Source: Melastoma dodecandrum (lineage: Eukaryota; Streptophyta; Magnoliopsida; Myrtales; Melastomataceae). Taken from it: a stretch of 64,000 nucleotides of DNA. The first letter of the stretch is position 1, and the number at the start of each line of letters is the position of its first letter. The stretch spans positions 4,154,001-4,218,000 of the forward strand of contig JARUPY010000474.1 in NCBI GenBank assembly GCA_029817715.1. Reading direction: 5' to 3'. A program made the position numbers and the translations under genes. Shown piece after piece: positions 2,390 to 53,900 of this stretch. The notes below the pieces were generated by a model. The model ran no database searches, was not told the origin of the DNA, and saw only the letters and a program-made list of their open reading frames with translations.

Positions 2390-4690
2390 CTAGTCTAACT
2401 CTATGCAGTTGTCTTCTCCCGTCTGCATTGGAGCGCTGTCTTGGGAGACTCCTTCCTTGTTGTTGGCGTTTGAAGTTTCGCCAACTCCTTCTTTCTCTGA
2501 GAGTCCCGGCTGGTCTTGAACTGCTTCAAGAATTTGTCGTGATATTTGTTGGGTTCTCTCATCATGCTCGATTTGCTGATTCAAGGTTTTGTCGGTGAAA
2601 TCAGCAATCTTGCTCCAAACCTCGAAGGTATCGGTTCGGAGGTGCAGCTCAGAGTTCTCTCGCCTCCAGAAGCTATCCAGAAGGTCGAGCATTCTCTGCC
2701 ATCCTCGGTCTCCTGCTTGCTCATCGATGAAGCTCAAATTTGACCGAAGAATCGTGACAGTGACCATACCATCACAGAGCACGTAATATTCGTCCTTGCG
2801 GGCTAACACATGCTCCAACACATCTTTAAGGAACTCAACCCTTATGGCCTTTCGGACAGTTTTGTCCTTGTAGTATTTCCGCCATAAACCTCTCTGATCG
2901 AGGTCTTGTCGTTGAGGTTCCGTCAGACGTCTACTCTCACATGGATGGATGTCCCATACTTGCAGATTTTGAAGTATCACCTTCCCATACTGCGGATGGT
3001 CTTCCTCCTCCATCATTGTGCTAGTAATCAACGCCGTGGCATACTTTGGTCCGTAGCCTAGGCATCCGAGTACATACCTTACCAACGTAGGCAGGGGTTC
3101 CATACATTCTGGTTCGGATCTGTCGATTTCCATTATGTCTACAAACCCAGCATATACGTAAGGTGCTGCTACTCCCACCATATCTGAGTGAATTCTCAGA
3201 GACGGCCACTTCCCCGATATCCAATGTAGATACGGTTGAAGCACAGTGTTTTCCTCAAGCGAGGATTCACTCATGTCCACTACTACCTTTGGGACGTCAT
3301 AATCTCTAACTTCCCATGGTATTATAGACATCGTTGTGGAGAATATCTGCTGCCTTTCTTTCTCAACTCGCGACAGCTCCTCCTCACCTGAAGCCATAAT
3401 CGATAGCTTATACTCCAGATCTTTGATGTACTCAACGGTCTTTTTTGCGAAAAACTTAATCTGGCGCTTGTCATCATGTTTGATGCCACCCAGGAGTCCT
3501 CCACAGACCACAGCCGCATCCCAACTTAGGGATTCGTCCTCAAATGAGTCTTCGTCAAAAAACCAGGATCCTCCTAGATCCTCATGGCCTTTGCCATCGT
3601 GGTTTTTACCACCGTGACTGCCCTCACTAGACTCTTTGACTGAGTCTCTTACAGGAATTGCTTCCTCAAAGCTTTCCTTCTTTTCTAGATTGCCTTCCAA
3701 TGCTGCGTAAGCACTTCCGAAGTCGAAGTATTGCTCACACTCCATTGCAGCCGCTTCCTCTGGTTCTGCCCTTGGTTCAGGGTCTACCACTTGGATTGGC
3801 TCGCCAATCATGGCCTTAAACTTAGCCTATTCCTCAGCATACTGTGTTTCCATATTCTCTTTCTGTTCCTCCTTGCTTTGTAACAAAGCCTTGTAGGATT
3901 TCACAGCTTGATTAATGGAAATCTTCTGCTCTTTGGCTAAGTGGTTTCGGCAGTAGTTGAACTGCTCCATGGTCAATGGAGACCACCAAGGTTCTTCAAC
4001 CTTTCCGTCCTTCTTAGGACCATCTTTTGCAAAATCATCCCTTTTGGGACCAGAAGACCCAAGCCTCTTGGCTTTCCTCTTCTTCCTGGCCTTCTCTTCT
4101 GACTCGGCTTTTGCCTTGTCTTTCAGATCTGCCATTTCCACATCTCTTCTGGAGCTTTCCTCCTTCGGATCTGTCATCTTCTTTTGAAGATCTTTCTTCA
4201 CATTTCTTTTAGAGTTGGTGTTACCCTTCTCCTTCAGATCTGCCTTCCCTTCCTGGGAAAATCTCGCTTTCTCCTTAGGACTGGTTGTTACCTTTCCCTT
4301 AGATCCAGCCATCCCCTTCTGGGATTTTTTCGCCTTTCCCTTAGATCTGGCCTCAGCCTCTTTGGGATTAGCCATCTCCTTCTGGAGATCTGGTTTCGCC
4401 TTACTCTCGGAGTCAGCTTTTGCTTTCTCCTTAAGTTCAGCCTTCCCCTTCTGGGAATCCGCAGTTTTCAGCTTCTTGGGACATTCGTAAGAACGATGTC
4501 CTAGTTGCTTGCACTGCCAGCAGAGCACTGCCGCTTTCGTTCCTGAAACGGAACCAGCATCACTATGCTCACCATCTCCCTTATTAGGACATACCTTTCG
4601 GGAGTGTCCCTCCTTCTTGCATCCCCAGCATATCTTTCTCTTTGCAGCAGGATCCATCTGCAGAGTTTTTAGAAAGAGAGGTGTTTGCAA
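2390..4690 (-). pseudogene. Viral second frame: twin zinc knuckles, lysine-rich repeats, unknown C-terminal region
   Basis: One frame of about 767 codons is split by a single in-frame TAG at 3827–3829. The start overlaps the end of the RNase H frame by about 100 bases in another phase (ATG at 4690 or 4657). The N-terminus has two CCHC knuckles close together (CWGCKKEGHSRKVC and CWQCKQLGHRSYEC). About 130 residues of imperfect lysine-rich repeats follow (K-G-K-A-D-L-K-E-K-A type). After the stop comes an acidic segment and then a ~280-residue folded-looking region rich in tryptophan and tyrosine (for example LQPYLHWISGKWPSL) that I do not recognise. Florendoviruses are known to carry an additional frame of unknown function, which this could represent. 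Nucleic-acid binding is the only role the sequence supports. Confidence 0.6.
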
Positions 4691-7013
4691 GTTCTCTAGA
4701 GAGAGAGTCAGCTATTATGTTGTGGTCGGATTTAATGTATTCGACCTCGTATTTATAATAGCTCAATAGTTCCTGCAACCTCAAGAGTCTAGTTTGCCTA
4801 GCCTCCTTAAGGTTCAGACTCATAAACCTTTTTACATAGGTTGAGTCAGATCGCACTAAAAATGCTTTCGGTGCCAAAAAGATGTAAAAAGCCTTTATTC
4901 CATATTTTAAGGCTAATACTTCCTTTTCATGTATCGGGTACCGTAGTTCGTACCCCTTTAAGCTTCCCGACCAGTATTTGCATACCGGTTCTGGTTTTCG
5001 TCATCTAATTTTGAGGACTGCTCCCCAATAATTTTCAGAAGCATCAACTTCCAAGACTAACTCGTCTTTATCAGATGGTAAAGCTAATTGTGGTAAATTC
5101 TTTACCTTTGCTTTAATCTTTCTAATGGACTGAGTGTCTTCATCTTCCCATTTCCAAGGACTTTTAGAAGAGGTTTTCTTCGAAATCCTACTCAGGTCTC
5201 GGGCAAGATCTTTCACAAACTTTCTTGCATAGTTAATGCATCCACAAAATCTTTGGACTTGCTTCCTATCCTCAAGTCTGTCAGGAAAATTAACTATTTT
5301 CTCAGCAATATGATTTTACAGTTTAATTTTTCCCTGCTCAATCTCCATGCCTAGAAAGTTAACTGATTCCTTAAACCACTCTATCTTCTTTTCTGATAGA
5401 ATCATACCTTCCCGTCGGAAGATATCAGTCACCTGATCAAGGTGCCTCATGTGTTCATCCTCAGACTGACTGTAGATTAGCACATCATCAATATAGACCG
5501 CACAAAATTTTCGGACCTGCTTAAAAGCATTATCCATTTTGCGCTGAAACACGCCTGGAGCATTTTTCAGACCGAATGGCATAACCAACCATTCAAACAT
5601 TCATCGCGGAGCATTGAAGGCAGTTAGAGGAACCGACTCTTCTTCCATTTTGACTTGTCAATATCCACTTTTCAAGTCAAATTTAGAAAAGTACTTTGGT
5701 TGACTCAGACTAATCCTATCAATAAGATCTCCCGCAGTTGGAATCTTATAGCCATCTTCCTTTGTAGCTTTATTAAGCCGACGATAATCTATAACCATTC
5801 GTGCTTTGCCTCGCACCTGCTCGGCATGGTTAATTACCATAAAGGCTGGACTAGAATGCGGACTGTAACTGTCCCTAATCAAACCCTTTCCAAGCAACTC
5901 AGGAATTTGTTTATCAAACTCCTCAACCATCTCAGCCGTATATGTAATATTTCTAGCTCTTATAATGGTTTCGGGATCTTTCAACTCTAGTTTAGCCCTG
6001 AGGCTATTTCGAGTCCATAACTTTAGTGGATCTTCACTAAAATTATAGGCCAGTTTTATTAGGAACTTATCCCATTTCGTTCCTGTTAACTTGACGGCCA
6101 TACACACTTCTTGTTTTGGAAACAAGTCGTCATACCAGCTAGAACTTCTGGTATTCGTTGGAGAAAACAGGGTTTGTTCCCATGAATCATTCTCATCCAA
6201 CCGTATATCACCACGTTGAGCTCGTACTCTGAAAGCTCTTTCACATGGGATATCACCACAGTATTCTGTCCGTTTTACCGGATAAAAGCCAAATTTTAAC
6301 CGAAGTCTAGGCTCTTGTAGAATACTTATCTTTACACCACCGATGGAAACATCGTTTTCATTCTGCACAAAAGGAAGGTTTTCCTTCTGTCCCTTCAAAA
6401 AGGCGTTACCAATAATGATGTCGGCCTCTAGTAAAGGATGTGCAAGAATCTCTTTAATGATGAACTTTTGTCCACCAATAAAGACAGGCACGTTGCTTGC
6501 CTTATGACCAATCATTGTGGCCATACCATCGACGTTAACCATGTGGATGGGTTTCTGCAGTGGTTCCCACCACTCATCTGGCAGAGCATTGAGTCTAGCA
6601 CAAGTTATACTACACCCAGTGTCTATCAAAGTATCCAGAGAATACTCATAGTATCCAGGAAATTTGAAAGTTAGAGCCACATATGTGCTCATATCTTCCT
6701 TCCTAACACTAAACCCAATATTCTCAGGTACACTTTGGGATGGTTCTATCATTCTCCAGATATCGTCTATTGCAATAGACCTTTGTTTGGCTATCTGCTC
6801 GATAACCTTACAAACTTCAGGAATCTCATATAAAGAGCTACCCGTATTGGTTATTCTTAACATCCGTATAGACTCCTCTCTCGTTTGATCTACAGGGTCT
6901 TCATAGACTGGTAATGATACCTGTCTATACCCTACGATTCTACCCGTATGTTGCGACGGGGCTCTCGAATCAACAGACCTTCGAGACATCTCTTCTATTA
7001 GTGGAACTTGCAA
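4584..7013 (-). pseudogene. Viral aspartic protease – reverse transcriptase – RNase H frame, broken
   Basis: A single reading frame runs from about 7013 to 4584. It carries an aspartic protease with the LIDTGCS active-site motif, then RT with MVIDYRRLN, FDLKSGY, LVMPFGLKNAP and the YIDD catalytic box. RNase H follows (LEVDASENYWGA, then a second half with VRSDS and SDHNIIADSLS). The frame is interrupted by stops at 5658–5660, 5601–5603, 5316–5318 and 5001–5003, two of them within the RT core, so this copy cannot make the enzyme. Its start overlaps the end of the movement-protein frame in a different phase, which may be native or a later frameshift. There is no integrase after RNase H, as expected for a caulimovirid. 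Confidence 0.85.
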
Positions 7014-8193
7014 CCTCTGGTCGAGAGACTATTACGTCTTCTCCCACATCACTGGCTCTTAAAGAGACTTCAGAGGGCGTTCTATTGAACGGCTCTCTCA
7101 GGATTGGCATCCTCACAGGTAAATGCCTGTCAGCCCTTTCGCTAAGCATAGGTAAATGCCTATCAGCTCTTTCACTAACCCTTGACGGATCTCCTAACAT
7201 AAGAGTAATTTCATTACCCCTCTGTTGGATGTTTGCCGCACTAATGGGCCTAGAGCTACTACCAGGTTCAGTCATAACCCAACTCCTTGGCCAAGTTAAT
7301 TCCAATGGATTCACCTCACGCCTATGGAACTGTTGGTAGTTGCTATGACCTTCCTCGAACAACTCTGTAAGTCTCGAGATGTTCCTCACACCAGGACTAG
7401 TGGTGTTTACTAATCGGTAAATCACCCTAGTGTGATACGCCAAATACTTGGCCTGGGGATTCATACGATCCATATTCATCGACTTGATTCTTAAGGGCAA
7501 TGAAGTCCCCAAACAGCGATCGTTCAAAGCCATCATAAAGTTTGGATGGACTTGGAACCATACAGGGCCATGTGCAAGGTTGGCCTGTACACCTGATATC
7601 AGCTGATCTCTAAACTCTCGCCAACGTTTGTCGATCACTGCTGCTACCAGAGGACTATCTGCTGGTAAATGAAACAGCGGGACTAATCCTATCTGAATCA
7701 ACCCAATGTGTATATAATTATATACACCTCTAGCGTTACGCATAGTTTCTCTTATGCGTTGTACATTCAAGAGTGGGATATCCAAAGTCTCAAGCTCGGT
7801 GCTCGTGACTTGTGCCGTCGCCTCTGTCTGTGAGATATCTATGGTGGATCGAAACCTAAATCTCGATACTTCATAAATTTCTCTCGCATTGACATTTGGC
7901 AACCTCCATTCCAGGATTGACTGGGATGGATCTTCGTACTGGTGGGTTTCCTCCAGTACCTGATTCGTTTTTTCCAGAGGAACCAACTCATCACCATCTC
8001 CTTCTCTTCCTGCTCGCATCATGAACAGATGTTCGGTCCAGAGATCAGAATCATCATCTGAGTCTGTATCATAATCAGACACAATCTCATAAATCGATTC
8101 TACTTCTGAGTCTAAGTCGGGAATCTCTTGCTCATCGATTGGCTCGTAAGCAAGAACTTCTTCCTCACGACTCCTGTCATCCAGGAAGACCAT
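6970..8193 (-). pseudogene. Viral movement protein region (30K superfamily)
   Basis: About 407 residues are open. The central part (residues ~120–280) has the hallmarks of caulimovirid movement proteins. There is an LDIPLL segment, then GVYNYIHIGLIQIGLVPLF, then RDQLISGVQANLAHGPVWF, and a following segment rich in N-F-x-M-x-L. These proteins modify plasmodesmata for cell-to-cell transport. The N-terminus is very acidic (a D/E-rich segment with SDYDTDSDDDSD). The frame is continuous in phase with the coat-protein-like frame upstream, interrupted only by a stop at 8263–8265, so the two were probably one polyprotein. Near its C-terminus an ~11-residue segment (SERADRHLP-M/V) is tandemly duplicated. 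Confidence 0.75.
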
Positions 8194-8262
8194 ACGGAGT
8201 CTTTCTCTCCTTTGGTTTTTCTTCGGACAACTATCCGCTTTGTGGTCTTTTGAACCACAAAA

Positions 8263-9795
8263 TCAGCAGCAATTACAACTGCTCAAGGGTTTCCCTTTAG
8301 GACATTTAGGCTCTCTGCCATGCTTTCTCTTGAAAGCATCTATCCTATCTTTGTCCTTTAGGTTATCCTTTCGTCTTACAAACCTTCTTGGTTTGTAAGC
8401 AGGACCTCCCTTTTGCTTACGCTGGAAGTCCTTCTTGGGCCAAACTTTCTTTTTGTTGTACCCAACAAACTTCCTCTTACGAGGAAAGTTCCTTCTCTTT
8501 AAAGAGTCTCCTGGAGTACTGCGAGTATCGCATCCATACCTTCCAAGCACATACTCTATCTGAGAACAGCAGCTCTTGTTTAGGTAAGGTAGCTTCTTAG
8601 CTGCCTCTTTCACCTGGAGCTCAGTACATGCTTTACGCATTGCGTACTTTACCGCCTGAATTTTTCCTCCGAGTCCAGAGACAATCTTCTCCTCACTCAG
8701 AAGTAATTCATAGGCCTTTTGCGCCACTTCCGGCCAAGGTTCGGGAAGTTTTGCAAAAAAGGTTCCTAATATGAACTGTTGTGATACTACATCCAGATTG
8801 TAATAATACTTCTGGAATTCACATACGTAGCTATCAAACCAGCACATATCACAAATCTATAGTTTAACTAGAGCGGTCAATGACTGCTCCTTTTCCACCG
8901 TTTCAGTGGATAACGAAAAACCACAGAATTCACGTTTCAGGGCGTCTGCAATTATTGCCAATACTCCGTCAACCGTCAGCGCTTGATCTATTTTTTCCTT
9001 AATGTCTGTGTGCGCCACTAAGGTTTTCCAATACTTCTGCGCTGTTCCCATAAGGGCTGCCACACACAATTCGTAGACTGCTCCAGGAGGTACTCCTCCT
9101 GCCGACGCCGTCATTCGAATAAGTGATAACCACTCATCTATCTTTTCAGATACGTGCTTTTCACAATCAATATCTAGAAAAGCACCTGGGGTAATTATAG
9201 GCTTCAAAACGTTATCCCTAGGAACAAACTCTTGTTTGGTTCTATGAGGATAATCAGGCCGGTAAATTTCCCTCTTCGCAGTTACCAGTTCGTTAAACGT
9301 TCTGTTGTCTAAGTGAACTGGAGTATCTTCTGCCAGACCTAAGGCTTTTCTTAGGTCCTTTGCCAACTCCCCGCTCTGGGAGTTCAAGTTTGCACTTCGC
9401 TTTTGTGAGTCTGAAATGAAAGGAGCTACTGACTCTCTATACATCTCATCCACACTCTTGCCTTGATTTTGTTTGGGATTTCTCCCTCCCAGATTCAACC
9501 TTTCGACTGGTTTTCCTGTTGTACTTTCCAGTCCAGAGGTAGCCTCGGCTTCAGGCCTTTTTAAACCTCTCTCTCTTTCCAGAGCGTCTAACATTGAATT
9601 AACAATGGAGCCTACTTCCTTTGCCATTTGGTTTCGGCTTTCTAGACTTTCATTGCTCCCCTGAATCGTTAGCTGAGTTAAAATATCATTTATACTCTTG
9701 CTAACTCCAAAAGGAGATAATCTAGCTTCTGGAACGAACTCCAACCTTGATGGAGTCCCAGAAGGATTTCCCGAAGATTTTCCTTCTCCAGCCAT
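8263..9795 (-). pseudogene. Viral coat-protein-like frame with C-terminal zinc knuckle, broken
   Basis: A 312-residue N-terminal part and a 194-residue C-terminal part lie in the same phase and are separated only by a TAG at 8857–8859 and a few codons. The second part has a segment FFAKLPEPWPEV like caulimovirid/gag capsid cores. It then has a long arginine/lysine-rich region and the first cysteines of a CCHC knuckle, at which point a TGA (8263–8265) cuts the knuckle. The remaining C-x4-H-x4-C residues continue in the same phase beyond the stop. The order capsid before movement protein is the reverse of most caulimovirids that I know. Confidence 0.7.
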
Positions 9796-38390: not shown

Positions 38391-39167
38391 ATGGATCAAC
38401 GAGGACATGCTCAACCTCCGGCCATGGGGGTGGTTGCCGGAACTGCCCAACTGCCATACGCTCCAATGCCTTATCAGCCAGGTCCAATGGGTGGGTCCCC
38501 CAATTACCCTGGTGTTGTCCCACCGGTGGTTGGGACTGTTCAACCGGCAGCACCGGCTACAGGAGCTCAACTCGCATACCAACAAATCCAACAGCAGCAG
38601 CAGCAGCAGCTCCAGCAACAGCTCCAGGCATTTTGGGCCAACCAGTACCAAGAAATCGAGAAAGTCACGGACTTCAAGAATCACAGCCTTCCCTTGGCAA
38701 GGATTAAGAAGATCATGAAGGCCGATGAGGATGTGAGGATGATATCCGCTGAAGCGCCGATCGTATTCGCCAGGGCTTGTGAGATGTTCATCCTTGAGCT
38801 GACGCTACGCTCGTGGAATCACACCGAGGAGAACAAGAGAAGGACGCTCCAGAAGAACGACATCGCCGCAGCCATCACGAGGACCGACATCTTCGACTTC
38901 CTGGTCGACATCGTCCCCCGGGAGGACCTGAAGGAGGAGGTCATGGGAGGCATCCCAAGAGGGCCTATGCCTGTCGGGGTACCAGCCGATACCATCCCTT
39001 ATTGCTACATGCAACCTCCCCACGGGGCTCCAGTCGGGACGCCGGGCATGTACATGGGGAAGCCTATGATGGACCCCTCCATGTACATGCAGCAGCCGCA
39101 TCCTTACATGACTCAGCAGATGGTCCCGGAGTCGTCGGAACAGCAGCAGTCATCCTCCGACCATTAA
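38391..39167 (+). CDS. NF-YC: Nuclear factor Y subunit C (NF-YC3/9-like)
   Basis: An intronless coding region of 258 aa from [10 protein letters not shown]; the ATG at 38391 is the first in frame. A proline/glutamine-rich N-terminus contains a segment [28 protein letters not shown] and a run of glutamines. The NF-YC core follows: [78 protein letters not shown] and DIVPRED. This histone-fold subunit pairs with NF-YB and binds CCAAT boxes with NF-YA, and serves CONSTANS in flowering and other pathways. A possible 3' UTR intron starts just after the stop (GTAAGT at 39176). The neighbour at 41889 is a tandem paralogue. Confidence 0.95.
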
Positions 39168-41888: not shown

Positions 41889-44117
41889 ATGGATCAGCAC
41901 CAACAAGAAGGATCTGATATGTCTCCGGTTGTGGTTACCGTTGCTAGCACGGAACAAGTGACATATGCATCACCTGGTTACCAGCCAATCCCTGTGACAG
42001 GATTCCCAAATTTTGTTACCTTTGCCCAGCCAATGGTCCAGGCTGGTTATCCCATTCCACCTACTGGAGGGCAGTTTTCTTACCAGCCAGGCCCTGTGAT
42101 AGGGTCCCCAAACTTGATGACCATGGCCGGGCCAGTGGTCGGTGCAGCTCATCCCGTTCAGCCAAGTGGAGCTCCAGGAGCTCCATCTGTTTACCAGCCA
42201 GGCCATGTCACAGGGTCCCCAAATTTCATGACCATGGCCCAGCCGGTGGTCGGGCCAGCACAACCGGTTCAGCCAACTGGAGCTCCATCTGCTTACCTGC
42301 CAGGCCCTGTGACAGGGTCTCCAAATTTGATAACCATGGTCCAGCCGGGGATTGGGTCTGCTCAACCGGTTCAGCCAACTGGAGCTCCATCTGCTTACCT
42401 GCCAGGCCCTGTGACAGGGTCCCAAAATTTGATGACCATGGCCCAGCCGGCGGTCTGGACTGCTCAACCGGTTCAGCCAACTGGAGCTCCATCTGCTTAC
42501 CTGCCAGGCCCTGTGACAGGGTCCCAAAATTTGATGACCATGGCCCAGCCGGCGGTCTGGACTGCTCAACCGGTTCAGCCAACTGGAGCTCCATCTGCTT
42601 ACCTGCCAGGCCCTGTGACAGCGTCCCCAAATTTGATGACCATGGCCCAGCCGGCGGTCAGGACTGCTCAACCGGTTCAGCCAACTGGAGCTCCATCTGC
42701 TTACCTGCCAGGCCCTGTGACAGGGTCCCAAAATTTGATGACCATGGCCCAGCCGGCGGTGTGGACTGCTCAACCGGTTCAGCCAACTGGAGCTCCATCT
42801 GCTTACCTGCCAGGCCCTGTGACAGCGTCCCCAAATTTGATGACCATGGCCCAGCCGGCGGTCGGGACTGCTCAACTGGTTCAGCCAACTGGAGCTGGAG
42901 CTCCATTTGCTTACCAGCCAGGCCCGGTGACATGGTCCCCAAATTTGATGACCATGGCCCAGCCGGCAGTTGGGGCTGCTCAACCCGTTCAGCCAACTGG
43001 AGCTCCATCTGCTTACCAGCCAGACCCCGTGTCAGGAACCCCAAATCTTGTGACCATTCCCCAGCCAATGGTCCAGGCTGATTATCCCATTCAACCTACT
43101 GGAACACAGTTTTCTTACCAGCCAGGCCCTGTTCCTTACCCGTCAGGTCTTGTGACAGGGTCCCAAAATTTGATGAACATGGCCCAGCCAATGGTTGGGA
43201 CTGCTCAGCCCTTTCAGCCAACTGGAGCTCCACCTGCTTACAATCAAGGCCCTGCTGCTCACCCCGTTCGGGCACCTTCTGTTTATCAGCCTGGGTTCTC
43301 AAATATTGTGACCATTGCCCAGCCAGGGGTTGGGACTACCGCCATACAGCCAACTGGAGGACAGTATGCTCACCAGCCCAGCAATGTGACAGGGTCCTCA
43401 AATTTGGTACCCGTAGCCCCGACTGGATCACAGTTCGTGCAGTACCAACTGTGCCAGCAATACCAGCAGCAGCAGCAGCAACTCCAGCAGCAGCAGCACC
43501 AGCAGCAGCAGCAGCAACTCCAGCCGCGGCAGCAGCAGCAACTCCAGGCATTCTGGGCTAAACAGCGTGAGGAATGCCTGAGAGTCACAGATTTTAGGAA
43601 CAACAGTGTCCCCCTTTCAAGAATCAAAAGGATTATGAAGGCTGATGAGGATGTGAAGATGATAGCAGCTGAAGCACCTGTCTTGTTCGCCAGAGCTTGT
43701 GAGATGTTCATTCTCGAACTGACAAAGCGTGCATGGAATCATGTTGAGGAGAGCGGCAGGAGGACACTTCAGAGGAGTGATATTTTTGCTGCTATCACTA
43801 GGACCGACCTCTTTGACTTCCTGACTGAGCTGATTCCCTGGGAGGACTCGAATGTCCTGGCCATGACCGGAACACCAAGAGAACTGATACCAGTTGGTGT
43901 GCCGCTGACTGCAGTCCCCCCCACCTTTCCACCTCAGCACATGACTCCAGTCAGTGGGCCCGACATGCAGATGGCTGCTCCAGTGATGGGGGGTCCATCA
44001 AGGCTGCAGCTGGCACCCCCTCTTCCTGCGGCTCAGGCGCCGGCTCCCAACGACTTTCAGGAGGAGCAGTCATCCGATGATTCCGAGCAAGGTGACGCTG
44101 TATTGCAGGAATTGTGA
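41889..44117 (+). CDS. NF-YC paralogue with a ~490-residue N-terminal tandem-repeat domain
   Basis: 742 aa in one exon, about three times the usual NF-YC length. Residues 31–518 are a tandem array of about fifteen units, mostly 34 aa, with consensus [34 protein letters not shown] glutamine-rich linker and a complete NF-YC core follow: [74 protein letters not shown]. The C-terminus is acidic. Core residues for NF-YB pairing look retained; PRED of the neighbour is PWED here, and other changes follow (RSWNH to RAWNH). The frame is open across the whole array, suggesting selection or recent origin. It is a tandem duplicate of the gene at 38391. The role of the repeat domain is unknown; a long Pro/Gln-rich activation region is a reasonable guess. 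Confidence 0.9.
41979..43442 (+). repeat. Coding minisatellite, 102-base unit, ~15 copies
   Basis: Units start at 41979, 42081, 42192, 42294, 42396, 42498, 42600, 42702, 42804, 42912, 43014 and 43116, followed by shorter, diverged units to 43442. Most are exactly 102 bases. The units at 42396 and 42498 are identical over all 102 bases, and those from 42396 to 42803 differ at only a few positions, while the outer units are diverged. This is the pattern expected of unequal exchange in the array centre. Length variants are all multiples of three (111, 108, 123 bases), so the frame is kept. Confidence 0.95.
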
Positions 44118-44532
44118 CTGTCATCAGTTTCAATTTGATGTCTTGCAATCCTAATTGTTGACTTTTATTGTTCTCTGTTTCCTTCGACGTAAATCAGATG
44201 ACTTTCCGGTGGAGGATCCTGAAGGATGGAAGCAGCATGCAGGGGAATGAGGCAATATTCTGCTCATTGTGGAGGAATCACAGCTGGGTGTAATGGTTCT
44301 GCGCGAAAGTGTTTGGATCTTGGATTTTCCTTCTGGTGCACCATGGATTGGTGGTGGTAACAAAACCCAGAGGCTGGAATTCTCTCTTGGATAATATCTT
44401 TTGAAACCTATCGGATTTTCTCTCTTTCGTTATCTTTTGTGGGCGTACTTTAATTTCAGTACAGGAAAAATGGCAAATCAGATTAGGCCGAGTATAGACT
44501 ACAAAACAAATAAAGAAACCCAGGTTTGTCTC
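44118..44532. other. 3' UTR and convergent intergenic space
   Basis: No gene is supported between the stop of the repeat-bearing NF-YC gene and the stop of the minus-strand gene. It probably holds both 3' UTRs. Confidence 0.5.
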
Positions 44533-45587: not shown

Positions 45588-46732
45588 TCAAGCGTTCACG
45601 ATTGTCCCACCATTAGGATGGAGGACCTGTCCAGTTATGTAAGACGAGCAGCTATTACAGGCTAGGAACATGAAGCAAGGTGCGACCTCCATCGGCTGCC
45701 CGGCCCTCTTCATCGGCACCTGCATGCCAAAGTTCTTTGTCTCCTCTTCCGTGAAGGATGCTGGGATCAGCGGTGTCCATATTGGACCAGGGGCCACTGC
45801 ATTCACTCTTATTCCCTTCTCGACTAGCTGAAGGGCAAGCCCTCTTGTGAAGGCAACGATGGCTCCTTTTGTCGAGGTGTAGTCCAGGAGCTTACCATTC
45901 CCCTTGTACGCGGTCACTGATGATGTGTTTATGATCGAGCTACCCTGTTTCATATGCTTCAGCGAATTCCTGCCACCATTTTGAGACGATTCAGACAAGA
46001 TTTAGCTTGTACGTTATCGGTGTGCGGAAACCTACTGTCGCCTTACTTGACCATGAAGAAGTCAGAGAAGCAGTTGGTCCTGAAAACCCTCTCGAGCCTC
46101 TCCTCGTCGATCTCCTCCACAGTCTTGCACTCATACTGCTCGGCCGCGTTGTTAACCAAAACATCTATCCGTCCATAAGCACCCATGACCTCCTCGACAA
46201 CTTTCTTGCAATTCTCATCGAATCCGAGGTCCCCTGCGACAGCCATAGGATCCTTCGCATCTGGGGTCTTCCCCTGTCGAAGCATCTGGAGGGTGTCGTT
46301 CGCGTCCTTATCCTCCTGACCTTTCAAGGTATGTGAATGCCACAGTGGCACCCTCCAAAGCGAAGCAGTGGCAAACCGCCCTCCCAATACCGGAGTCACC
46401 ACCCATGACCAACGCCACTTTCCCCTGCAAACAGAAAAAGTACAAAATGGGACATGGAGCTTAACCATGCGTCCGACGCGCTGAGAAACATTAAGACGTA
46501 CATGGAGTTTGTTAGAGGGCTTGTAGTCATGGGAGGTGAACTGAGGGGAGGGGTCCATGACGTGCTCCATGCCAGGTTGCTTCTCCTGCCTATGCGGAGG
46601 GAAATTTCCACCGTCGTGGGACGAAGCCACGGCTGTTCTCTTGGGGGAGAGGAATATGGGGGCGAGTGATGATGGCGGGAGGACGAAGAGCGAGGGGCTG
46701 GCGCGATGCACCGAACAACTTGCAACTCCCAC
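45588..46732 (-). pseudogene. NADPH-dependent aldehyde reductase / glucose-ribitol dehydrogenase-like SDR with frameshift
   Basis: Three exons (46502–46732, 46047–46424, 45588–45969) encode a classical SDR like chloroplast aldehyde reductase ChlADR1. An N-terminal transit-like segment is followed by HDYKPSNKL, GKVALVMGGDSGIGRAV, KGQEDKDANDTLQML, VLVNNAAEQYE, the serine in INTSSVTAYKGNG, the YTSTK catalytic pair, and GPIWTPLIP. These enzymes detoxify reactive carbonyls with NADPH. Two oddities are seen. There is one extra base near 46326–46330 (minus strand ..CATACCTTGAAAGG), which puts the nucleotide-binding half out of phase with the rest and creates an early stop. Also the cofactor motif starts MGGDSGIG where TG is invariant. 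Exon 2 is 378 bases, one more than the phase requires. A pseudogene is likely; a sequence error is possible for the frameshift alone. Confidence 0.8.
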
Positions 46733-50955: not shown

Positions 50956-53900
50956 ATGTTGGAGGAGATCATTGACGCGATTAAGGAGAAGGTCGGCCAC
51001 CATCCGAAGGCGAAGGTAGGATCCTCCAAGGATGGTCGTAAGGTGTCCGCGACGGTCGTCCTGATGAAGAAGAACGTGCTGGACTTGAACGACTTTGACG
51101 CGTCCGTCATCGACGACCTGGACGAGCTGCTGGGAAAGAAGGTGTCCCTGCGGCTTATAAGCGCGGCTAATGGCGACCCTGGTGAGTGCTTTCATGGTCA
51201 TCCTGTGTCACGGAGCTCGTTGGGGGTCACTTTGCTTTGTAGATGATCTATCTGATAGCAAAAATAAGATAATGCCGCCGGTCGCAGTTATTTCATCGTT
51301 TAATATCGATTATGTGGTTATTGCGACATAATATGACTTAACGATTCGTTGGATCTGAGTCCGAGAAAACCCTTTGAATCGACCCGGTAAATCATATAAA
51401 AAAAAGGTCATTAGGGATGATATGGACATGCCCTCCTTAATTATTACTTTCGTCACTGTTACTTCCTTAATTCTGCTTTTAATGCTACAAGAATATGCAG
51501 GAAATGGTCTCAAGGGGAAGCTGGGAAGCCCAGCCTTCCTAGAAGAGTGGATATCCACCTTCACTCCCCTGACGGCGGGAGAGTCTGCGTTCAAGGTCTC
51601 CTTCGACTGGGATGAAGAAATTGGCCTCCCCGGCGCAATCGCCATAAGTAACAACCACCAGAGCGAGTTCTACCTAAGGTCCATAACTCTCGAGGATGTC
51701 CCGAGCCATGGCCGAGTTCACTTCGTCTGCAACTCCTGGGTGTATCCTGCCCATAGGTACAAGGCGGACCGCATCTTCTTCTCCAACAAGGTATGTACTC
51801 TTAAGGCGTGCCGATGAGCTACTCCGAGTTTTATTTACCTGTCGTATTGGGGTTAACTCTAAGGCGACGTTTTCAGACGTACCTTCCGGGCCAAACTCCG
51901 GCACCGCTGGTTAAGTACAGAGAGGAGGAGTTGAGCAGCTTGAGGGGAGATGGAACGGGAGAGCTAAAGGAATGGGACCGGGTCTACGACTATGCTTACT
52001 ACAATGATTTGGGTGACCCTGACAAAGGTCCAGAATATGAGCGGCCAGTTCTCGGAGGATCGGCAGAGTATCCCTACCCTCGCAGGGGACGGACCGGTCG
52101 CCCTCCGACTAAAGAAGGTAAGTTGCTCAGAGAAATTCGAGTTCCCTCTCTGTTTTGCATCACGACTCAATTTCGTTTCACCTGTCACAGATCCGAACAG
52201 CGAGAGCAGGCTGCCCCTTCTCATGAGCTTGAGCATATATGTTCCTAGAGATGAACGCTTTGGTCACTTGAAGATGTCGGATTTCCTTGCATATGCGCTA
52301 AAGTCCGTCGGGCAGTTCATCAAGCCAGAGCTCGAGTCTCTGTTTGACAAGACCCCAAAGGAGTTCGATTCTTTCCAAGATGTGCTCGACCTTTACGAGG
52401 GAGGTCTCAAGCTTCCCAACAGCTTCGTTAGCAAGATCCAGGAAAATGTTCCATTGGAGTTGCTGAAGCAGGTGCTTCCGACCGAGGGTGAAGGACTCCT
52501 TAAATATCCGATGCCTCAAGTAATTCATGGTCAGCGAAAAATGCTTATAAAGCCGATCCCAGTCCTGAATTCATTATGTCAATTTTCAGTCCGAAAACAA
52601 TTGTTGTTGATTTGCAGAGGATAAGTCTGCGTGGAGGACTGATGAGGAATTTGGCCGAGAAATGCTCGCTGGAGTGAACCCTGTTGTCATCCGCAGTCTG
52701 CAGGAGTTTCCTCCTACGAGCAAGCTAGACCCTGCTGTCTATGGCAACCAAACCAGTTCAATCACTGACGATCACATTAAGCATAATCTTGATGGCCTGA
52801 GCATACAACAGGTGAGCTCGTGGATTCATATTATATATAAGGCACATCGCATCGATCTGCTTTCCTTGTCCTCTCTATCTGCTGGAAATCATAGAGATGA
52901 GTGCAAAACTGCAGGCCATCAAGAAGAACAGGCTATTCATTCTGGATCATCACGACGCTCTCATGCCCTACCTCAGGCGGATAAACAGCACGACCACGAA
53001 GACCTACGCCTCTCGAACTCTCCTGTTTCTGAAGGACGATGGGACTTTGAAACCGCTGGCTATCGAGCTCAGCCTGCCCCATCCCGACGGAGATCAGTAC
53101 GGCGCCGTTAACAAAGTGTACACACCTGCCGATCAGGGGGTGGAAGGTTCCGTGTGGCAGCTCGCCAAAGCTTACGCTGCCGTCAACGACTCCGGCTACC
53201 ACCAACTCATAAGCCACTGGTAAATAAATTGTTGTATTGAGCTGCCGATGATAGTCTTTGAGCACGTCGATTCACTGTATGACTTATTGTGATGACAGGT
53301 TGAACACTCATGCGACGATTGAGCCCTTTGTGATAGCGACCAATAGACAACTAAGCGTGCTACACCCGATTTACAAGCTCCTGCAACCTCATTTCAGGGA
53401 CACGATGAACATAAACGCGTTTGCACGGCAGATTCTCATCGATGCTGGCGGTGTGCTGGAGTCAACCGTATTCCCGGCCAAGTACGCCATGGAAATGTCC
53501 TCCATGGTTTATAAGGACTGGGTTTTCCCCGACCAGGCTCTTCCAGCGGACCTCATCAAGAGGTAGACATCGATAATCTTTTTTGAACAGAGCCGTGTAG
53601 CTCGGCCGCATTGATTGATTGATTGGGATTTGTGTGCTGCAGGGGAGTGGCGGTCGAGGACAAAAACTCGCCACACGGCCTCCGGCTGCTGATAGATGAC
53701 TACCCGTACGCAGTGGACGGGCTTGAGATATGGTATGCAATCGAGGCTTGGGTCGAAGACTACTGCTCCACCTACTACAAGTCCGACGATGCCGTCAAAG
53801 GAGACACGGAGCTCCAGTCGTGGTGGAAGGAGCTGGTCGAGGAGGGGCACGGCGACCAGAAGGGCAAGCCGTGGTGGCCGAAGATGCAGACCCTGAAGGA

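What the first reader, a model, noticed from the sequence alone, without database searches (positions are those of the whole stretch)
41889..44117. NF-YC with a giant N-terminal repeat array grown from one ancestral segment
A histone-fold CCAAT-binding subunit normally near 250 aa here has 742 aa. About 490 residues are 34-residue units. The unit (Y-Q-P-G-P-x-x-G-S-P-N .. P-x-V-G-T-x-Q-P .. T-G-A-x-x-A-Y) aligns with a single-copy segment just before the Gln run of the neighbouring NF-YC (38391–39167). So after tandem duplication one N-terminal segment was amplified while the histone fold stayed intact. I know of no NF-Y subunit described with such a domain. It could be a new transactivation, phase-separating or partner-titrating module.
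Basis: partly seen in the sequence, partly recalled or inferred. Interest (0 to 1): 0.88.

Follow-up and report, generated by a model that had tools for sequence, protein, structure and literature searches.

The report
Plant NF-YC subunit with repeat array
A plant copy of a common gene-regulating protein (NF-YC) has had one short segment multiplied into a long floppy arm; a sister copy in the same genome and a related species carry it too, so it is a real, inherited variant whose job is still unknown.

Summary
Window 41889-44117 is an open frame of 742 aa: an NF-YC histone fold behind a 487-residue array (15 units, 9 of exactly 34 aa), grown from the segment that the tandem neighbour (38391-39167) has once. 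New here: (1) the same genome holds a second array gene on contig C501 (12 units) in a duplicated block whose dS (about 0.24 by NG86) fits Melastoma's recent (sigma) genome duplication; that block lost the canonical neighbour except for a 72-bp relic. (2) Melastoma candidum MLD38_018627 is the C501 copy's orthologue (9 units). Flank units correspond in order; central units vary (6, 3, 1). So the array predates the duplication and is no assembly accident. (3) The histone fold is under purifying selection (dN/dS 0.16). The array diverges as fast as adjoining noncoding DNA, yet stays in frame, stop-free and poor in charged residues: it is translated, and constrained in composition more than in sequence. 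It is predicted disordered. Best reading: a working NF-YC paralogue whose enlarged, length-variable disordered arm probably tunes activation or condensation of NF-Y complexes (inferred). A tolerated, functionless minisatellite is a serious rival. No expression data. Six literature searches showed no described counterpart.

The parts
38391..39167 (+). Canonical NF-YC neighbour, 258 aa, tandem partner
   Evidence: M. candidum counterpart P0051 identical at 254 of 258
38472..38576 (+). Single-copy segment (35 aa) homologous to the array unit
   Evidence: unit HMM 21.2 bits on the segment that holds it; borders by eye
41889..44117 (+). Array-bearing NF-YC, unspliced frame, 742 aa
41979..42395 (+). 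Array units 1-4 (5' flank, paired in order with C501 units 1-4)
42396..43013 (+). Array units 5-10 (central, variable in number; units 5, 6, 8 are 99-100% identical)
43014..43439 (+). Array units 11-15 (3' flank; 11-14 paired with C501 units 8-11)
43440..43547 (+). Gln-rich run before the fold; predicted helix 514-565
43569..43844 (+). NF-YC histone fold and flanks, residues 561-652
43845..44091 (+). C-terminal tail, residues 653-735 in part
44092..44197 (+). Predicted last intron (GT..AG, 106 bp)
   Evidence: no RNA evidence
44198..44250 (+). Predicted last coding exon
   Evidence: matches the end of the M. candidum model

Best explanation
A canonical NF-YC was duplicated in tandem before the sigma genome duplication. 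In one copy the roughly 35-residue segment between the N-terminus and the Gln run was amplified in frame into an array of 9-15 units, while the histone fold went through a burst of substitution and then came under purifying selection. Shown: the array, its origin, a lower bound on its age, frame retention, selection on the fold. Inferred: the fold still pairs with NF-YB and enters NF-Y or CONSTANS-type complexes, and the nearly uncharged Pro/Gly/Ala/Gln/Thr/Val-rich array works as an enlarged disordered arm whose length and composition, rather than exact sequence, set activation strength or condensate properties, as the short disordered arm and polyQ of Arabidopsis NF-YC9 do.
For: Second array gene with its own open frame in a shared block. 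Array orthologue in M. candidum, the only array protein returned by searches of about 5.8 billion proteins. HFD dN 0.038, dS 0.239 (NG86), bootstrap range of the ratio 0.04-0.46 over 200 resamples. dS near the sigma event, Ks 0.256-0.280 (PMC9911893, passages). No stop among 99 nucleotide differences in paired units (about 3.2 expected, P 0.04), and 5 of 64 residue changes involve K/R/D/E against 22.6% expected, P 0.0017. In the adjoining upstream noncoding DNA 12 of 12 gaps are not multiples of three over 1089 bp; the N-terminus plus units 1-4 have one gap, of 3 bp. Residues 1-513 have no predicted secondary structure, block pLDDT mostly 35-50. In Arabidopsis, deleting NF-YC9's disordered regions or changing its polyQ length shifts CO/NF-YB/NF-YC condensates and flowering (PMC11696179, passages).
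Against: No expression, binding or condensate data. Paired array units have dN/dS 0.94 by NG86 (0.64-1.62) and above 1 by ML (0.158/0.116), and nucleotide divergence like noncoding DNA (12.5% and 14.9% against 11.9%): this also fits a functionless spacer. Frame retention shows only that the array is translated ahead of the fold. The window copy has five private changes in the fold, among them A577S (A in 125 of 125) and R651W (R in 124 of 125), hinting at relaxation. In PMC11696179 both a lost and a lengthened polyQ impaired function, so longer is not simply stronger. An M. candidum orthologue of the window's own copy was not seen.
Confidence: 0.45

Rival explanations
1. Tolerated minisatellite: the histone fold and tail are a working NF-YC, but the array is a 102-bp coding minisatellite that expanded in a disordered linker where extra length does no harm. 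Unit number drifts; it does nothing specific.
For: Paired units evolve at dN/dS near 1 and at the nucleotide rate of adjoining noncoding DNA; central units turn over (6, 3 and 1); frame retention is explained by the fold lying downstream.
Against: Charged changes are depleted (5 of 64, P 0.0017; 8 of 65, P 0.025); the array has been kept in both homeologues and in M. candidum, and array dN (0.138) equals that of the ordinary disordered tail (0.144).
Confidence: 0.3
2. Partner switch or titration: the derived histone fold binds NF-YB but has changed its NF-YA or CONSTANS face, so the protein competes with canonical NF-YC or serves other partners; the array is bulk that blocks or recruits.
For: 17 of 87 fold positions derived in all three array proteins, including L613K, K623G/C, A633F and V646T; later constraint.
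Against: Most changes are conservative; no structure of a complex was examined here, so contact positions are not known from these calls.
Confidence: 0.18
3. Decaying paralogue on the way to loss, with the array as a symptom of relaxed selection.
For: Five private fold changes in the window copy; the canonical gene of the C501 block was lost, so loss happens here.
Against: Fold dN/dS 0.16 with upper bound 0.46; open frames in all three copies known.
Confidence: 0.06
4. Assembly or gene-model artefact.
For: Near-identical central units are hard to assemble; unit number at the window locus was not checked with reads.
Against: Arrays at two loci of this assembly and in the separate M. candidum assembly, with ordered flank units.
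Confidence: 0.01

Closest known systems
Plant NF-YC3/NF-YC9-type subunits, e.g. Arabidopsis NF-YC3 (5g49) and the window's own 38391-39167
   Same: Histone fold, Gln run before it, start MDQ, one copy of the segment homologous to the unit
   Different: Array of 9-15 units in place of one; 17 derived fold positions; C-terminus probably continued in a further exon
Arabidopsis NF-YC9 disordered arm and polyQ in CO/NF-YB2/NF-YC9 condensates (PMC11696179, passages read)
   Same: Disordered N-terminus with a Gln run next to the fold; candidate way of working
   Different: Short arm, polyQ varied, no unit array; condensation not tested for the present protein
ELF3 polyQ length variation (mentioned in PMC11696179; the original was not read)
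   Same: Length-variable low-complexity tract in a plant regulator
   Different: Another protein; a homopolymer and not a 34-residue unit

Membership tests
NF-YC (CBF-C/HAP5) | NF-Y type histone fold, with NF-YC as nearest solved relative | tested here: met
   PF00808 60 bits against a cut-off of 21.4; best chain NF-YC3, 137 bits, ahead of human NF-YC (108) and NC2 alpha (30.5)
NF-YC (CBF-C/HAP5) | Conserved positions of the fold | tested here: met
   Of positions identical in 125 of 125 fetched canonical folds, four change in at least one array protein (577, 581, 592, 619); 17 of 87 positions differ from the canonical majority in all three
NF-YC (CBF-C/HAP5) | Helix pattern of the fold | tested here: inconclusive
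   Helices 576-584, 596-622, 629-638, 640-648, similar to the canonical control, but modest pLDDT in both
NF-YC (CBF-C/HAP5) | Dimer with NF-YB, trimer with NF-YA, CCAAT binding | not testable with these tools
   needs binding assays
Plant NF-YC3/9 subgroup | N-terminal Gln run and a segment homologous to the unit | tested here: met
Plant NF-YC3/9 subgroup | Position in a tree | tested here: inconclusive
   Array clade joins the Melastoma canonical genes at support 74/76, stem 1.44 changes per column, bootstrap not settled
Condensate-tuning NF-YC9-like factor | Forms or tunes CO/NF-Y condensates | not testable with these tools
   only predicted disorder

The most novel reading that the evidence does not exclude
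A new NF-YC subclass of the Melastoma lineage in which the copy number of a 34-residue unit is a genetic dial on the strength or material state of NF-Y or CONSTANS complexes, giving a natural length series (1, 9, 12, 15 units) kept by selection since before the sigma genome duplication.
Probability: 0.25. Interest if true: 0.78.

Novelty: new variant of a known kind. Interest (0 to 1): 0.55.

Why it matters
NF-Y subunits are conserved, and how the length and make-up of their disordered arms matter is open. PMC11696179 shows that changing polyQ length in NF-YC9 alters condensates and flowering, and names the effect of length, and other NF-Y subunits, as questions of interest. This lineage supplies a natural series: one unit in the canonical gene and 9, 12 and 15 units in array genes, two of them homeologues in one genome. 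It is also a dated case of an intragenic repeat that keeps frame and composition while its sequence drifts. If the array proves functionless, it is still a clean example of a conserved transcription factor tolerating a 487-residue expansion.

Tried and rejected
Assembly artefact: made unlikely, since the array recurs at two loci and in M. candidum. The M. candidum gene model as proof of expression: not used. Its first 170 residues are upstream sequence, matched in pieces and with stops by C501 upstream DNA, and begin MKADEDV like the relic of the lost canonical gene; the paper says RNA-seq was one input to annotation (PMC9911893, passages). An array beside the rho paralogues: tblastn of 12 loci, L012-L023 (three of them 9.9 kb on the downstream side of the genes on C263, C439 and C569; two beside NF-YC genes of another type on C123 and C412), found folds but no array. 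Dating the tandem duplication against rho: unresolved. HFD dS is 1.96 for array against canonical and 1.88 for the canonical rho pair, both near saturation; a clade of array genes with the window's canonical gene is not rejected, AU p 0.204. The first tree was discarded because some rows were cropped wrongly. The first array dN/dS, from a whole-protein alignment (0.178/0.205), was replaced by unit-by-unit pairing, which leaves out central units and unit 15. Pairing of units: by DNA identity alone units 2, 11, 12, 13 and 14 find their counterpart best; unit 3 ties, and units 1 and 4 are as close or closer to another unit of their type, so these are paired by order. Two 1-bp gaps at the 3' end of the array fall where window unit 15 and C501 unit 12 look like different remnants of a unit (by eye) and were not counted as frame changes. 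Minus-strand frames over the array are by-products of units free of stops in that frame. Pfam shows no family in the array at E up to 1. NF-YC with Melastoma gave 2 papers: PMC11477356 (passages; its NF-YC gene is NF-YC11 elsewhere) and PMC10262750 (listing only).

Full report
OBSERVATION. The frame at 41889-44117 encodes 742 residues. Residues 573-636 match Pfam CBFD_NFYB_HMF, and Arabidopsis NF-YC3 is the best solved relative, aligned over 560-650 without gaps. Residues 31-517 split into 15 units, 14 of which begin with Tyr and the last with His. The consensus of the 17 units of exactly 34 aa in the window and C501 copies is [34 protein letters not shown]; Tyr 1 is kept in 17 of 17. TRF scores the middle as 8.7 copies of 102 bp. 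An HMM of the units finds the N-terminal segment of canonical NF-YC in the window (21.2 bits), in two M. candidum proteins (23.0, 22.3) and in Cephalotus (22.5), against 9.0 for the best of 3180 shuffled segments; most of the 159 real segments score much lower.

RELATIVES. Searches of about 5.8 billion proteins with residues 500-742 (44 hits), with the C-terminal 273 residues alone (1529 hits, 120 listed) and with residues 1-520 (1 hit) returned one array protein, MLD38_018627 of M. candidum. Each search scored only the nearly 8000 candidates that shared most words, length limits apply, and I read the sequences of 13 of the hits in full, so absence elsewhere is provisional. The likely true start of the M. 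candidum protein is residue 171 of the model, which leaves 553 residues, 306 of them array. In the window's own genome (373 Mb, 607 contigs, unnamed) 54 places match PF00808; two have open frames over 400 residues: the window gene (748) and C501:8187349 (697).

TWO HOMEOLOGUES. Window 31.1-36.1 kb, 40.1-45.2 kb and 49.4-49.8 kb align with C501 at about 76-87% on the main diagonal. Between the first two, C501 lacks the canonical NF-YC but keeps two abutting pieces of it, 35 bp (97%, E 5e-11) and 40 bp (92.5%, E 4e-12), together 72 bp at C501:8183446-8183517. The M. candidum model begins MKADEDV, a piece of the same fold, which fits the same relic. HFD dS between the two array genes is 0.239 by NG86; other estimators give less (ML 0.186; YN00 0.155). 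The window's canonical gene differs from those on C263 and C439 by dS 1.06 and 0.95, and these two from each other by 0.20. The published Melastoma peaks are 0.256-0.280 (sigma) and 0.927-1.022 (rho), both shared with Osbeckia (PMC9911893, passages). So the tandem pair and its array existed before sigma; whether before rho is open.

ARRAY HISTORY. Units 1-4 and 11-14 of the window copy pair in order with C501 units 1-4 and 8-11 at 84-91% DNA identity. Identity alone singles out the partner for units 2, 11, 12, 13 and 14; the others rest on order. Between lie window units 5-10, C501 units 5-7 and one unit in M. candidum. Units 1 and 11 are of a second type (QPMVQA.YPIQPTG), also paired across copies. 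Window units 5, 6 and 8 are 99-100% identical, so the centre has turned over recently.

SELECTION. NG86 values from unit-by-unit or local alignment: HFD 91 codons, dN 0.038, dS 0.239; C-terminal tail 83 codons, 0.144 and 0.296; paired array units 258 codons, 0.138 and 0.147 (ML 0.158 and 0.116). For comparison the canonical sigma pair on C263 and C439 has 0.013 and 0.203. The array ratio is near 1, but its dN equals the tail's; its dS is low, perhaps from exchange among units (inference). Nucleotide divergence is 12.5% (N-terminus and units 1-4) and 14.9% (unit 11 to the Gln run) in the array, 11.9% in the adjoining upstream noncoding DNA and 6.9% in the HFD. All 12 gaps in that noncoding stretch are not multiples of three; at that rate about 13.5 would be expected in 1227 bp. 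In the array the gaps are 3 bp at the 5' side, and 21, 48, 9, 1 and 1 bp at the 3' side, the last two in a stretch of doubtful alignment; both frames reach the fold. No stop arose where about 3.2 were expected (P 0.04). Frame retention shows that the array is translated in one piece with the fold. Depletion of charged changes (5 of 64, P 0.0017; 8 of 65 variants against the consensus, P 0.025) points to a constraint on composition. K/R/D/E make up 4 of 487 residues in the window array and 9 of 409 on C501 (from the percentages); aromatic residues are 6.6% in the window array.

FOLD. Against 125 fetched NF-YC folds, chosen by a motif filter and gapless over 87 positions, 17 positions differ from the majority in all three array proteins, 5 in the window copy alone and 2 in C501 and M. 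candidum alone. The stem of the array clade is 1.44 changes per column. Rapid change before sigma and constraint after it is what a paralogue with its own role would show, but relaxed constraint followed by retention would look similar.

STRUCTURE. AlphaFold2 gives no secondary structure for residues 1-513, pLDDT mostly 35-50, a long Gln-rich helix 514-565, and histone-fold helices after it; mean pLDDT 48. The canonical control has the same plan, mean 51. Both are modest models on 30 sequences, so they support disorder only weakly.

FUNCTION. Nothing here tests function. The nearest published mechanism is NF-YC9 in Arabidopsis, whose disordered regions and polyQ length tune CO/NF-YB/NF-YC condensates and flowering; both no and a longer polyQ impaired it (PMC11696179, passages). 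A disordered, nearly uncharged, length-variable array beside the Gln run would act on the same property, hence the chosen explanation at 0.45; a functionless but tolerated array stands at 0.30. That this is an NF-YC paralogue with a real, inherited array I hold at about 0.95.

LITERATURE. NF-YC with Melastoma; with tandem repeat, histone fold and N-terminal; with intragenic, repeat expansion and others (4 of 5 terms); with N-terminal extension and repeat; with Myrtales; and with intrinsically disordered and repeat number showed no such subunit. Apart from the two papers whose passages I read, entries were seen as listings only; subscription journals and preprints are not held.

Noticed in passing
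window 2390-9795, minus strand: ORFs with caulimovirid-type domains: movement protein (6970-8193), A3 peptidase (5658-7013) and a zinc knuckle (3827-4690): an endogenous pararetrovirus-like stretch. Observed only.
   Followed up: no
C501:8183446-8183517 (within L009): A 72-bp relic of the canonical NF-YC upstream of the C501 array gene; the annotated M. candidum protein MLD38_018627 appears to start in the matching relic, which would be a gene-model error in a public record.
   Followed up: yes
L011:2843-2944: The predicted last intron of the C501 array gene is 102 bp and open in frame: retention gives 691 aa, splicing 657 aa; in the window copy retention ends at the stop at 44117.
   Followed up: partly
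window 51992-52624 and 46043-46732: Frames with a lipoxygenase domain and with a short-chain dehydrogenase domain near the array gene.
   Followed up: no
own genome, e.g. C123/C412 and C263/C569: Some NF-YC loci occur twice with nearly the same protein, and the assembly (373 Mb) is larger than the 256.2 Mb reported for M. candidum (PMC9911893), so uncollapsed haplotypes are likely.
   Followed up: no
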